A model generated the notes under the pieces. The model saw only the letters and a list, made by a program, of their open reading frames with translations, was not told the DNA's origin and made no database searches. From Rhodocyclaceae bacterium (GTDB lineage: Bacteria; Pseudomonadota; Gammaproteobacteria; Burkholderiales; Rhodocyclaceae), in assembly GCA_004379165.1 (NCBI GenBank), contig NKXK01000025.1:124001-188000 (forward strand): a stretch of DNA of 64,000 bases, read 5' to 3'. The position numbers and the translations under genes are program-made. This document shows positions 87 through 49,325 of this stretch, in pieces. Each line of letters opens with the position of its first letter. Positions within the stretch are counted from its first letter, which is position 1.

Positions 87-3047
87 GTGGAGTTTTTGGT
101 GGATTCAGGGGCGGCCTTACGGCGCATCTTTCGCACGCAGTGGTTATTGGCCGGCCTGGCGCTGGTCCTGATCGCCATTGGCATCGCCTACCACTGCCTG
201 AGCACCCATGCCGAAACCGGACGCCGCGAACAACATCAACTGAGCCACCTCGGTAGTCTGGTCGGACAACTGGTTGAACGCCGGCTGAGCGCAGTCGATG
301 CGCTGCTGACGATGGTCGCCGGGCAGTATCCGGGCTATCTGCCGCCACCAGGCGAGCTCGACAAGCTGTCGGCCGACATGCAGCGCTATATCATGCTCGG
401 GCGCGGCGCCGACATCCTGTTGCTGCTCGATGCCAGGGGCGAAGTCCTGGCCTCGAACCGGCCGGAACTGGTCGCCCAGAACTTCGCGCACCGTTACTAC
501 TTCCGGGAAGCGAAAGCTGCGGTGAACCCGGAAAATCGCATTATTTCGCCGCCCTTCGAGACGGTACTCGGCGACTATACCTTCACGCTGTCGCGCAAAC
601 TGGTGGATCCCGATGGGGAATTCATTGGGGTGCTGATGGCGACGCTGGATGCGCCTTTCATCTCGCGTCTGCTGGGCGGTGTGCTGATGAGCGAGGACAT
701 GTGGGCGGCGCTGGTGCATGGCACCGGGGTGACGGTCTTGTCAGCGCCCGAACATCGCTTGCCCGACGGGCAGGACATCCAGCGTGCCGGGGGGTTTGTC
801 GCGGCCGTGCCGGCTGCGCATGGCGAGCAGCGTTTGCTTGAAGACGCCGTCACCCTGGGTGAGCCGCATGCCGTGGCGGTGATGCGCATTTCGCCGCCGG
901 AGCTTCAGCTCAATCAGCCGCTGATCGTTGGTGTCGGCCGCAATCTTGATGCCGCCTACGCCAACTGGCGGCGCGAGACCTGGGCGCTGGGGGCGCTGTA
1001 CCTGATGCTTGTCGCCGCCGCATTTTTCGGATTGCGGCATTACCAGCGCCGGGTGCGCGATGACTGGAAGCAGGTGACGCGGCAGCAGGCGCTCATCGAA
1101 ATGGCCGGGGATGGTATTCATGTGCTCGACCGCAACGGGGTGGTCGTCGAGGCCAATCCTGCCTTCCTCAAACAACTGGGTCTGGACCGTTCCGATCTCG
1201 GCAGGCTTCGGGTCAGCGATTTCGATACGGTGCTGGATGAGACACAACTCGCCCGGAACATGCAGGCGCTGCTGGCGCGTAACGAGGAAATGCGCATCGA
1301 GTCAGTGCATCGGCGCCGCGATGGCAGTCAACTCGATGTCGATGTCAGTGCACGGGGCTTCGAACTGGATGGCGAGATGCTGATCCTTGCCTCGGCTCGC
1401 GATATCTCTGGCCGCAAGGCCGTCGAGGCGCAATTGCGCAAGCTGACGCTGGCCGTCGAGCAAAGCCCGGAGAGTGTGTTCATTACCGACGCCCGGGCGC
1501 GCATCGAATACGTCAATCCTGCCTTTGTCGAAACTAGCGGGTATCGTGCCGATGAACTGATCGGGCAGAACCCGCGCATCCTCGCCTCTGGCCTGACGCC
1601 CGTCGAAGAGTACCGTGCGATGTGGGACACCCTGCTCGCCGGCGGTATCTGGCGTGGCGAATTTGTGAACCGGCGCAAGAATGGCGAGACTTACGTCGAA
1701 GCCGAGATCATCTCGCCGATCCGCAACCCGGCCGGCGAGATGACGCACTATTTGGCGATCAAGCAGGATGTCACCGAGCGGCGACGGATCGAGAACGAGC
1801 TGGCCGCCTACCGTGAGTCGCTGGAACACAAGGTCGACGAGCGTACCGCGGCCCTGACCGAGGCCAACCAGGCGCTGGCTGCCGCGCGCGACAAGGCCGA
1901 GGAGGCCACCCGCGCCAAGGCAGCTTTCCTCGCCAACATGAGCCATGAAATCCGAACGCCGATGAACGGCATCATCGGTATGCTCCATCTGCTGCGGCGG
2001 AGTGGCGTCGACGAGAAACAGAGCGGCTATCTCGAAAAGATCGCCCGCTCGGCCGACCATCTGCTGACGGTGATCAACGATATTCTCGATCTGTCCAAGA
2101 TCGAGGCCGGCAAGCTCAATATCGAGCAGGTGCCGGTCCAGCCACGGCAGATCATCGGCAATGTCGCGTCGATGATTTCGGCAGCGGCGGCTGCCAAGGG
2201 GCTGGCGGTCGTCATTGAACCGGACAGCCTGCCTGATGGGCTGCTCGGCGATCCGACGCGTTTGACGCAGGCGCTGCTCAATTTCGCCTCCAATGCCGTC
2301 AAATTCACCGAATCCGGCCGCGTCGTGCTGCGGGTGGGTTGTGTGGGCGAGCGGGATGACAGCGTTGTCCTGCGTTTTGAAGTGGAAGACACCGGCATCG
2401 GTATCGCACCGGAGGTCATGGGGCGTCTGTTTGCGGCCTTCGAGCAGGCGGACAACTCAACCACCCGCATTTACGGCGGTACCGGCCTCGGCCTGGCGCT
2501 GGCGCGGCGTCTTGCCGGGCTGATGGGCGGCGAGGCTGCGGCGCGCAGCGTTCCGGGGCAGGGCAGTTGCTTCTGGTTTACCGCCCGCTTGCTGCGCGGA
2601 GTGCCAGAACGTGCAGATCATGAGGAACTGCACCGCGGCGACGCCGAAGTCCGGCTGCGTGAGCAATACGCCGGGAAACGCGTGTTGCTGGTCGATGACG
2701 AACCGATCAACCAGGAAATCAGCGCCATGCTGCTGGAAGACGTCGGTCTGCAGGTCGAGCTTGCCGACAACGGGCTGATGGCGCTCGAGAAGGCACTGTT
2801 CCGGCCATACGATCTGGTCTTGATGGACATGCAGATGCCGGTCATGGACGGCTTGGAGGCCACCCGCCGCTTGCGCGAGCTGCCGGGCTACGGCCAGGTG
2901 CCGATCATCGCGATGACCGCCAACGCCTTTGCCGAAGACCGTCAGCACTGCATGGCGGCCGGCATGGATGATTTCATCGGCAAGCCGGCCAACCCCGATC
3001 GTCTTTACCGGGTGCTGTATCGCTGGCTGGAGCGCGGCGCCCGTTAA
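87..3047 (+). CDS. Hybrid sensor histidine kinase (Cache-PAS-PAS-HisKA-HATPase-REC)
   Basis: This is a 986-residue membrane-anchored hybrid histidine kinase. Residues about 18-37 and 300-317 are membrane segments flanking an extracytoplasmic Cache-like sensor. Two PAS domains follow (about 335-450 and 455-575), then a coiled linker, HisKA with the phospho-accepting His620 in SHEIRTPMNG, a HATPase domain with DTGIGI and GGTGLGL boxes, and a C-terminal receiver with Asp914 in [11 protein letters not shown]. The ligand cannot be read from the sequence. The GTG start at 87 has no strong Shine-Dalgarno, so a slightly different start is possible. No HPt or partner regulator lies next to it; the next genes, regA and regB, are on the other strand. 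A possible FNR site upstream suggests oxygen control. Confidence 0.9.
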   Translation: MEFLVDSGAALRRIFRTQWLLAGLALVLIAIGIAYHCLSTHAETGRREQHQLSHLGSLVGQLVERRLSAVDALLTMVAGQYPGYLPPPGELDKLSADMQRYIMLGRGADILLLLDARGEVLASNRPELVAQNFAHRYYFREAKAAVNPENRIISPPFETVLGDYTFTLSRKLVDPDGEFIGVLMATLDAPFISRLLGGVLMSEDMWAALVHGTGVTVLSAPEHRLPDGQDIQRAGGFVAAVPAAHGEQRLLEDAVTLGEPHAVAVMRISPPELQLNQPLIVGVGRNLDAAYANWRRETWALGALYLMLVAAAFFGLRHYQRRVRDDWKQVTRQQALIEMAGDGIHVLDRNGVVVEANPAFLKQLGLDRSDLGRLRVSDFDTVLDETQLARNMQALLARNEEMRIESVHRRRDGSQLDVDVSARGFELDGEMLILASARDISGRKAVEAQLRKLTLAVEQSPESVFITDARARIEYVNPAFVETSGYRADELIGQNPRILASGLTPVEEYRAMWDTLLAGGIWRGEFVNRRKNGETYVEAEIISPIRNPAGEMTHYLAIKQDVTERRRIENELAAYRESLEHKVDERTAALTEANQALAAARDKAEEATRAKAAFLANMSHEIRTPMNGIIGMLHLLRRSGVDEKQSGYLEKIARSADHLLTVINDILDLSKIEAGKLNIEQVPVQPRQIIGNVASMISAAAAAKGLAVVIEPDSLPDGLLGDPTRLTQALLNFASNAVKFTESGRVVLRVGCVGERDDSVVLRFEVEDTGIGIAPEVMGRLFAAFEQADNSTTRIYGGTGLGLALARRLAGLMGGEAAARSVPGQGSCFWFTARLLRGVPERADHEELHRGDAEVRLREQYAGKRVLLVDDEPINQEISAMLLEDVGLQVELADNGLMALEKALFRPYDLVLMDMQMPVMDGLEATRRLRELPGYGQVPIIAMTANAFAEDRQHCMAAGMDDFIGKPANPDRLYRVLYRWLERGAR
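517..550 (+). repeat. Dispersed 34-nt repeat, copy 1 (inside sensor kinase)
   Basis: This copy begins CTGCGGTGAAC and keeps the GAAAA tract, but its second A/T tract is TTATTT instead of CAAAAT. It is read in the kinase frame as AVNPENR. It aligns without gaps to the other copies in this window. Confidence 0.6.
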
Positions 3048-3130
3048 ACGGCTTGTGCCAGCCCGGCAGGTGAAGATCGGGATATTTCGTTATCTCACCG
3101 AAGGCGGGGAAGCAGCCTGCTTTTCACGGA

Positions 3131-3148
3131 TTCCCGCCGTCGCGGGAA
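3131..3148. other. Perfect 7-bp hairpin in the 3048-3181 intergenic gap
   Basis: TTCCCGC-CGTC-GCGGGAA forms a perfect stem with a 4-nt loop between the convergent ends of the hybrid kinase and regA. There is no T-run on either side, so it is not a canonical Rho-independent terminator. Nothing else was seen in this gap. Confidence 0.35.
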
Positions 3149-3181
3149 AGACAGGTCGCTCCGCAGATGCCGGCGGCGGCC

Positions 3182-48896: not shown

Positions 48897-48912
48897 CAAG
48901 GGAGACTTACTG

Positions 48913-49284
48913 ATGTCGCACAAAATTCTGATTGTCGATGACGAACCCAACATCGTCATTTCGCTTGAATTCCTGATGAAAAAAGAGGGCTTCCAGATCG
49001 CCGTTGCTGGCGACGGCGAAGAAGCGCTGGCCAAGGTCGCCAGTTTCGCGCCGGATCTGTTGCTGCTCGACGTGATGATGCCGAAGAAATCCGGTTTTGA
49101 GGTTTGCGAGGCCTTGCGTGCCGACCCGGCCAACAGCGCCCTGAAAATTGTAATGCTGACCGCCAAGGGTCGTGAGACTGAAGTCGCCAAAGGTCTCGCA
49201 ATCGGTGCCGATGCCTATGTGACCAAACCCTTCTCGACCAAGGACCTCGTGGTTCGCGTCAAGGAGTTACTCGGCGCTGCCTGA
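48913..49284 (+). CDS. Stand-alone receiver-domain response regulator
   Basis: The 123-residue protein has DDEP (9-12), phospho-acceptor Asp53 in LLLLDVMMPKKSG, Thr in MLTAKG and Lys in VTKPFST. It lacks the LuxR HTH of CrbR/ErdR, so its output is unclear. AAGGGAG precedes ATG 48913. It follows the kinase gene by 16 nt and is its likely phosphorylation partner. Confidence 0.9.
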   Translation: MSHKILIVDDEPNIVISLEFLMKKEGFQIAVAGDGEEALAKVASFAPDLLLLDVMMPKKSGFEVCEALRADPANSALKIVMLTAKGRETEVAKGLAIGADAYVTKPFSTKDLVVRVKELLGAA

Positions 49285-49291
49285 TCGGCGT

Positions 49292-49325
49292 CTGCGGTCA
49301 ACGCGAAAATCCGTCCAAAATCGGG
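49292..49325 (+). repeat. Dispersed 34-nt repeat, copy 9 (intergenic, 7 nt after a stop codon)
   Basis: This copy reads CTGCGGTCAAC, GCGAAAAT, CGTCCAAAATCGGG. It is the last copy found; none was seen from 49326 to 64000. Confidence 0.73.

What the first reader, a model, noticed from the sequence alone, without database searches (positions are those of the whole stretch)
517..49325. A dispersed 34-nt non-palindromic repeat present at least nine times in 49 kb
Gapless 34-nt copies occur at 517, 5054, 10244, 13891, 25317, 37677 and 49292 (+) and at 31115-31148 and 41319-41352 (-). The core CTGCGGT(C/G)AAC is almost invariant; two A-tracts follow at positions about 15-19 and 26-29, one helical turn apart, with GCC before the second. 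Weaker matches lie at 9864-9897 (-), 34167 and 47277. Copies fall in genes and between them; three start within about 25 nt of a stop codon. The GCGGT core followed by phased A/T tracts recalls Pasteurellaceae uptake sequences, but could equally mark chromosome organisation or a protein-binding site. I know of no description for this group.
Basis: seen in the sequence. Interest (0 to 1): 0.85.

Follow-up and report, generated by a model that had tools for sequence, protein, structure and literature searches.

The report
Dispersed uptake-sequence-like repeat in Dechloromonas relatives
A 30-odd-letter DNA motif is scattered through this bacterium's genome and, in different "dialects", through many of its sister species, with the layout and evolution of the tags that some bacteria use to recognise and take up DNA of their own kind; if tests confirm that role it would be a third bacterial group with such tags.

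Summary
The repeat is real. A profile finds 138 copies in 464 kb of this genome (reversed-sequence control: 1), 19 in the window; about 900 per 3.06-Mb genome by extrapolation. The host is in the GTDB genus that holds Dechloromonas denitrificans ATCC BAA-841.

Consensus: CTGCGGT(C/G)AACCCG(A/G)AAAA-n6-CAAAATCG: a core plus two A/T tracts one helical turn apart. Sister species carry related dialects (CCACGGTCAACCGGAAAA, CTACGGTCGG, TGCGGTCGAC with up to 1256 copies); others carry almost none. Two dialects were scanned outside the genus and are at background there.

Copies lie in genes and between them, avoid divergent promoter gaps, are spaced more evenly than chance, show no replication-strand bias in a complete relative, and arise by substitution, not insertion (57 of 69 coding site-genome pairs gapless). 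A 34-kb mobile element in one motif-rich relative has none. comEC, comEA, dprA and a minor-pilin operon are present here.

Best explanation (about 0.67): a third lineage of DNA uptake sequences, built like Pasteurellaceae USS but neither USS nor Neisseriaceae DUS. Uptake is untested and the receptor unknown; the ComP-like pilin family is family-wide, so not diagnostic. A chromosome-organising binding site is the main rival.

The parts
518..546 (+). motif copy, 34.1 bits, inside gene 87-3047
5055..5083 (+). motif copy, 44.0 bits, inside called gene 3712-5877 (-)
9868..9896 (-). motif copy, 25.2 bits, inside gene 9253-10182
10245..10273 (+). motif copy, 37.1 bits, intergenic, convergent gap
13892..13920 (+). 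motif copy, 35.3 bits, inside gene 13158-13955
20902..20930 (+). weak motif match, 13.9 bits, inside gene 20872-23250
25318..25346 (+). motif copy, 38.6 bits, inside gene 25103-25828; the aligned stretch of relative G266 has CTGCGGTCAACCGGGAAAA, no gap
31119..31147 (-). motif copy, 40.8 bits, inside gene 30900-31751 (-)
33735..33763 (-). weak motif match, 13.9 bits, inside gene 33527-35197
34168..34196 (+). motif copy, 28.1 bits, inside gene 33527-35197
37678..37706 (+). best copy in the window, 46.9 bits, intergenic, 22 nt after a gene end
41323..41351 (-). motif copy, 40.7 bits, intergenic, convergent gap, 7 nt after a gene end
47278..47306 (+). motif copy, 34.8 bits, inside histidine-kinase gene 46182-48896; mostly gapless in relatives, which carry degenerate or other-dialect versions
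49293..49321 (+). motif copy, 42.7 bits, intergenic, 8 nt after a gene end; relatives G245 and G263 carry their own dialect at the same place
52402..52430 (+). weak motif match, 15.2 bits, inside gene 51584-52579
54858..54886 (+). motif match, 17.0 bits, inside gene 54583-55245

Best explanation
The repeat is a DNA uptake sequence: a self-recognition tag for natural transformation. A surface receptor, most likely a minor type IV pilin, binds the CGGT-centred core and the phased A/T tracts of extracellular DNA; [quoted passage not shown] Because tagged fragments enter preferentially, chance mutations toward the motif spread by transformation, so tags accumulate in genes and gaps wherever they are tolerated, and each lineage drifts with its receptor into its own dialect. 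SHOWN here: the motif, its genome-wide density, dialects in sister species, gapless origin by substitution in genes, even spacing, avoidance of divergent promoter gaps, near-absence from some sister species, absence from one 34-kb mobile element, and the presence of comEC, comEA, dprA and a minor-pilin operon. INFERRED: that the motif promotes uptake, that a minor pilin binds it, and that receptor and motif co-evolve.
For: 138 profile sites in 464 kb of this genome versus 1 in reversed sequence; 168 in 480 kb of relative G266 versus 1. Core plus two A/T tracts at positions 13-17 and 24-28 from the T of TGCGGT; a downstream A/T tract also in the other dialects. Dialects: de novo 10-mer counts in 80-kb samples give CGGT-centred words in 5 of 11 genomes and clear ones in 5 of 10 further 40-kb samples; genus-wide, CGGTSRRCCSGVAAA has at least 90 copies in 14 of 76 genomes and at most 7 in 28 of 76 (reversed control 0-7), TGCGGTCGAC at least 250 in 21 of 76 (reversed control at most 25). 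Origin by substitution: 57 of 69 coding site-genome pairs gapless, none of all 91 pairs with a deletion of 20 nt or more, sites less conserved (70.8%) than flanks (80.2%) in coding pairs. 88 of 138 sites coding, 41 intergenic, 9 at edges; 2 of 49 gap sites in divergent gaps that make up 28% of gap bases (p 4e-5). Spacing CV 0.74 versus 0.98 at random, 0 of 5000 simulations as even. No strand bias against GC skew in G266 (skew>0: 30 +, 35 -; skew<0: 53 +, 50 -; tallied). No site in about 33.7 kb of a mobile element in motif-rich G229; about 7.6 expected at 36 per 160 kb (expectation is my arithmetic). ComEC 794-aa frame, ComEA over cut-off, DprA, PilE-FimT-PilV-PilW-PilX-PilY1 in this genome.
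Against: No uptake or transformation experiment. PF16732 (ComP_DUS) is over its cut-off in 70 of 76 genus genomes, motif-poor ones included, and in 91 of 101 of a family sample, so it is not diagnostic. ComEC integrity does not track the motif: of 7 genomes with split or truncated hits, G229, G209 and G253 are motif-rich and G206, G218, G250 and G211 motif-poor, while motif-poor G199, G112 and G240 have long intact frames. Motif-rich G266 has no ComEA hit over the cut-off. Inverted pairs, common for USS and DUS terminators, are rare: 3 neighbouring pairs within 120 nt among 138 sites, 2 among 168. This genome's sample shows a mild strand bias (85 + of 138, p 0.008) that G266 does not. Only 4 of 22 non-coding pairs align gaplessly, so the substitution argument rests on coding sites.
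Confidence: 0.67

Rival explanations
1. The repeat is the binding site of an intracellular DNA-organising protein (a nucleoid-associated, SMC-loading or segregation factor) whose specificity has drifted between species.
For: Non-palindromic, evenly spaced, chromosome-wide, phased A/T tracts that can bend DNA, in genes and gaps alike. The mild strand bias in the sample of this genome.
Against: No strand bias in G266 and no limitation to one part of its chromosome (all 24 windows of 20 kb have at least 2 sites). Close sister species almost lack the words tested, and others use different cores; sites for an essential organiser would be expected to be conserved (expectation from general knowledge of matS, KOPS, parS).
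Confidence: 0.16
2. A recombination or repair signal (Chi-like) read by RecBCD/AddAB.
For: Dispersed, frequent, non-palindromic, in genes.
Against: Chi sites are short and strand-biased (recalled); here about 30 nt with phased tracts, no strand bias in G266 and fast change among sister species.
Confidence: 0.05
3. A transcription-factor or RNA-level regulatory element.
For: 41 of 138 sites are intergenic against 6.7% expected.
Against: 88 of 138 lie in genes; gap sites avoid divergent gaps (2 of 49) and favour convergent ones (12 of 49); about 900 copies by extrapolation; no Rfam match in the window other than a tRNA.
Confidence: 0.03
4. Copies of a small mobile or REP-like insertion element.
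For: Many near-identical copies; close pairs exist.
Against: 57 of 69 coding pairs gapless, 0 of 91 with a deletion of 20 nt or more; not palindromic; strict pattern in 0 viral contigs; the finished motif is a profile with position-specific tolerance, not a clonal copy.
Confidence: 0.02

Closest known systems
Uptake signal sequence (USS) of Pasteurellaceae (Hin type AAGTGCGGT, Apl type ACAAGCGGT)
   Same: GCGGT in the core of this genome's dialect, two A/T segments on the 3' side about one helical turn apart with A first and T later, dispersal in genes and gaps, even spacing, origin by substitution, dialects (PMC1626085, abstract passages and section 9; PMC12616744, introduction).
   Different: Different outer core; the first A/T tract starts 8 positions after GCGGT (position 13) where the USS segment lies just 3' of the core (PMC1626085 section 9); other dialects here replace GCGG by ACGG; lower density (0.3/kb against close to 1/kb); inverted pairs rare; host is a Rhodocyclaceae member.
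DNA uptake sequence (DUS) of Neisseriaceae
   Same: Dispersed, several dialects, phylogenetically closer hosts, a ComP-family pilin gene in the genome; overlapping dyads of dialect words resemble those reported in Simonsiella muelleri (PMC3630211, passages).
   Different: No CTG-centred GCCGTCTGAA word; A/T tracts downstream, which DUS lacks; PF16732 pilin not specific to motif-bearing genomes.
Chromosome signals KOPS, matS, parS (recalled)
   Same: Genome-wide sites for a DNA-binding protein.
   Different: No skew, no ter or ori restriction in G266, fast species-level change.

Membership tests
Pasteurellaceae USS | 9-bp core AAGTGCGGT or ACAAGCGGT | tested here: not met
   Core is CTGCGGTSAAC, CCACGGTCAAC, CTACGGTCGG or TGCGGTCGAC
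Pasteurellaceae USS | inner core GCGG | tested here: inconclusive
   Present in this genome's and the TGCGGTCGAC dialect, replaced by ACGG in the G243 and G245 dialects
Pasteurellaceae USS | two A/T segments 3' of the core, centres about a helical turn apart | tested here: met
   Positions 13-17 and 24-28 in this genome, also G266, G243, G245; the first tract is missing in the TGCGGTCGAC dialect
DNA uptake sequences (USS and DUS in general) | hundreds to thousands of copies, in genes and gaps, no insertion origin | tested here: met
DNA uptake sequences (USS and DUS in general) | no orientation bias | tested here: inconclusive
   None in G266; whole genome of the window 121/106; but 85 of 138 in the 464-kb sample, p 0.008
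DNA uptake sequences (USS and DUS in general) | frequent inverted pairs acting as terminators | tested here: not met
   3 pairs within 120 nt among 138 sites, 2 among 168
DNA uptake sequences (USS and DUS in general) | host has natural-competence genes | tested here: met
   comEC, comEA, dprA in this genome; pilQ and pilT were not searched
DNA uptake sequences (USS and DUS in general) | motif raises DNA uptake or transformation | not testable with these tools
   Needs an experiment
Neisseriaceae DUS | GCCGTCTGAA-type word with CTG core | tested here: not met
   Consensus
Neisseriaceae DUS | ComP receptor | tested here: inconclusive
   PF16732 hit in this genome, 44.4 bits over a 27.3 cut-off, but as common in motif-poor genomes
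Insertion element, REP or MITE | present/absent as an insert at orthologous places | tested here: not met
   57 of 69 coding pairs gapless; 0 of 91 with a deletion of 20 nt or more

The most novel reading that the evidence does not exclude
A third, independently evolved DNA-uptake-tag system, in one environmental Rhodocyclaceae genus, that has converged on the Pasteurellaceae plan (CGGT core plus phased A/T tracts) although its hosts are closer to Neisseriaceae, and that has split within the genus into at least four dialects and near-losses, so that gain, drift and loss of mating-like self-recognition can be followed among sister species.
Probability: 0.62. Interest if true: 0.86.

Novelty: new variant of a known kind. 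Interest (0 to 1): 0.76.

Why it matters
[quoted passage not shown] A third group outside both, with several dialects in one genus, would show that such self-recognition evolves repeatedly and toward a similar DNA shape, and would give non-pathogenic, partly cultured hosts for finding receptors by comparing species with different dialects. It would also mean that gene exchange among wastewater and sediment bacteria of this group is channelled by dialect.

Tried and rejected
Insertion-element origin: rejected for coding sites by the gap test. Known RNA family: no match in the window but a tRNA-Ser. Viral origin: strict pattern in 0 viral contigs (a strict pattern, so weak evidence). ComP-family pilin as a marker: rejected, because PF16732 is as common in motif-poor genomes and across the family. 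Comparison of minor-pilin operons in 16 relatives: found PilE-, FimT-, PilV-, PilW- and PilX-like genes unevenly and gave no pilin that separates motif-rich from motif-poor genomes, an earlier try, read many loci in the wrong orientation and is not used. ComEC integrity as a correlate: no association. De novo word counts on 40 kb are too small a sample: G229, G227 and G231 gave no clear word there although whole-genome counts are high. The TGCGGTCGAC and CTACGGTCGG dialects were not scanned outside the genus; the class scan tested CGGTCRRCCGGAAAA only and the family scan TGCGGTSAACNNGRAAA only. Gene calls are from a simple script of mine, not from a standard annotation. Profiles were trained and applied on the same samples, with reversed sequence as control. 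Structure prediction was not used.
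Full report
OBSERVATION. The nine copies and three weaker ones are present as described. The word TGCGGTSAACNNGRAAA with up to two mismatches matches 16 times in the window against 0.57 in shuffles, 0 of 100 shuffles reaching 16. The whole genome (3,060,671 bases, 44 contigs; the window is C29:124001-188000) holds 227 exact matches, 121 and 106 on the two strands, reversed control 0; the looser TGCGGTNAACNNNNAAA gives 305, control 0. A profile trained on 464 kb of this genome (window plus 400 kb) finds 138 sites of at least 11 bits against 1 in reversed sequence, 19 of them in the window. 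At this density the genome would hold about 900 (extrapolation).

ANATOMY. Counting from the T of TGCGGT as 0, the strong columns are TGCGGT (0-5), C or G (6), AAC (7-9), an A/T tract at 13-17 and a second at 24-28, with weaker CCG before the first and CC before the second. In both tracts the early bases are A and the later ones A or T. The tracts are 11 positions apart, one helical turn.

WHO HAS IT. Named genomes with a strict form of the motif (52 stretches) are titled Dechloromonas, Azonexus, Rhodocyclaceae, Zoogloeaceae, Betaproteobacteria, Gammaproteobacteria or Proteobacteria, plus one Phycisphaerae bin that is probably misbinned. In the family, 194 of 199 genomes examined lie outside the genus; 10 of these have one match each of TGCGGTSAACNNGRAAA and the rest none. 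In the class, CGGTCRRCCGGAAAA gives at most 2 matches in any of the 368 other genomes. The other dialects were not scanned outside the genus.

DIALECTS. De novo counts of 10-letter words in 80-kb samples of 11 genomes show a CGGT-centred dispersed word in five: this genome, G266 (TGCGGTCAACCGGAAA), G243 (CCACGGTCAACCGGAAAA), G245 (ATGCTACGGTCGG...AAAAAA) and G236 (TGCGGTCGAC); six show none (G206, G199, G218, G250, G112, G240). In 40-kb samples of ten more, G147, G204, G210, G230 and G246 show such words and five show none clearly, although three of those five have high whole-genome counts. Genus-wide, CGGTSRRCCSGVAAA has 90 or more copies in 14 of 76 genomes (up to 402) and 7 or fewer in 28 (reversed control 0-7). 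TGCGGTCGAC has 250 or more in 21 of 76 (up to 1256), and about 20-60 in many others (reversed control at most 25). A downstream A/T tract persists in every dialect examined; the first tract is missing in the TGCGGTCGAC dialect. At one intergenic place (49293) relatives G245 and G263 carry their own dialect where this genome carries its own; likewise at C29:118081.

HOW COPIES ARISE. Flanks of the 138 sites were aligned to all fetched sequence of relatives: 34 sites had alignments across them in 31 genomes, 91 site-genome pairs. Of 69 pairs at 28 coding sites 57 are gapless, the longest deletion is 15; of 22 pairs at 6 non-coding or edge sites only 4 are gapless, the longest deletion 19; none shows a deletion of 20 nt or more. 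In coding pairs the sites are less conserved than their flanks (70.8% against 80.2%). So coding sites arise by substitution, as Redfield and colleagues showed for USS (PMC1626085, passages seen); non-coding alignments are too diverged to decide.

WHERE COPIES LIE. Of 138 sites 88 are coding, 41 intergenic, 9 at gene edges, against 90.3, 6.7 and 3.1% for random 29-mers. Of 49 gap sites 2 are in divergent gaps (28% of gap bases, p 4e-5) and 12 in convergent gaps (10.6%, p 0.004). In genes one reading phase dominates in each orientation (31 of 47 and 27 of 41). Spacing is more even than random (CV 0.74 against 0.98; 0 of 5000 simulations). In G266, a complete chromosome, 168 sites occur in 480 kb (control 1), every one of 24 windows has at least 2, and orientation does not follow GC skew (30 + and 35 - where skew is positive; 53 + and 50 - where negative, tallied by me). 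In this genome's sample 85 of 138 are on + (p 0.008), mostly in positive-skew stretches (75 against 42); this mild bias is unexplained. Inverted pairs are rare (3 and 2 close pairs).

COMPETENCE GENES. This genome has ComEC (794-aa frame), ComEA (over cut-off), DprA and an operon PilE-FimT-PilV-PilW-PilX-PilY1 at C4 17632-6738 (-), whose first gene hits ComP_DUS (44.4 bits, cut-off 27.3) and second GspH; the PilV and PilX names rest on order and on similarity, with no Pfam hit. PF16732 occurs in 70 of 76 genus genomes and 91 of 101 of a family sample, so it does not mark motif-bearing genomes. ComEC is found in 71 of 76 genomes; seven have split or truncated hits, three of them motif-rich (G229, G209, G253) and four motif-poor (G206, G218, G250, G211), so there is no association (with 37, 66). 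G266 lacks a ComEA hit over the cut-off. In G229 a 33.7-kb element (GC 0.515 against 0.64-0.65 of the flanks) splits comEC; it has no motif site, where 7.6 would be expected at the sampled density.

MECHANISM. The simplest account of a tag that is frequent, tolerated in genes, evenly spread, strand-neutral, born by substitution, dialect-forming among sister species and missing from incoming DNA is an uptake sequence maintained by biased transformation. The link to uptake is inference. The receptor is unknown; PilE-like and FimT-like minor pilins are candidates by analogy with ComP and FimT (PMC12616744, introduction).

COMPARISON. USS: GCGGT core and two 3' A/T segments are shared, the outer core, the tract distance and the rarity of inverted pairs differ (PMC1626085 section 9). 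DUS: different word, no A/T tracts. It therefore works like, but is not a member of, either family as defined. In the held open-access library no paper has 'DNA uptake sequence' with Dechloromonas or 'uptake sequence' with Rhodocyclaceae; broader searches showed no title on such a system outside the two families in the rows listed. Subscription papers and preprints are not covered.

Noticed in passing
L280-L281 (G229:C33:109612-143311) and L282-L283 (G250:C1:2218694-2251156): In two sister species comEC is split at about the same place by related 32-34-kb mobile elements (blocks up to 8.6 kb at 81% identity); the G229 copy encodes a large serine recombinase, a phage-type integrase, a type ISP restriction-modification protein, a type B DNA polymerase, a D5/VapE-like primase and a DinB/UmuC-type polymerase. 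Elements that disable competence.
   Followed up: partly
L176:6738-14624 (-), G000:C4: A 2628-aa PilY1-like protein with long low-complexity repeats (STSQLTQSTLQNLRSTSQL and TTGPTxVASCTPxTAS units) before its beta-propeller domain, in the minor-pilin operon.
   Followed up: no
window 28721-30220: Two adjacent reductase-like genes, alignable at 74-77% over three blocks 792 nt apart, just downstream of a class I PHA synthase gene (26933-28663): a tandem duplication (the reductase name is recalled from the order).
   Followed up: no
L121 (JAGPEO010000108.1): A contig titled Phycisphaerae carries a perfect motif of the Dechloromonas type; probably a misbinned contig.
   Followed up: no
G236 samples L248-L251; L260 near 808-860 (G266): The TGCGGTCGAC dialect contains the palindrome GTCGAC, and overlapping back-to-back sites such as CCGGTCGACCGG occur, resembling overlapping DUS dyads reported for Simonsiella muelleri (PMC3630211 passage).
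   Followed up: partly
464-kb sample of G000: Mild excess of sites on one strand in positive-skew stretches (75 against 42), not seen in G266.
   Followed up: partly
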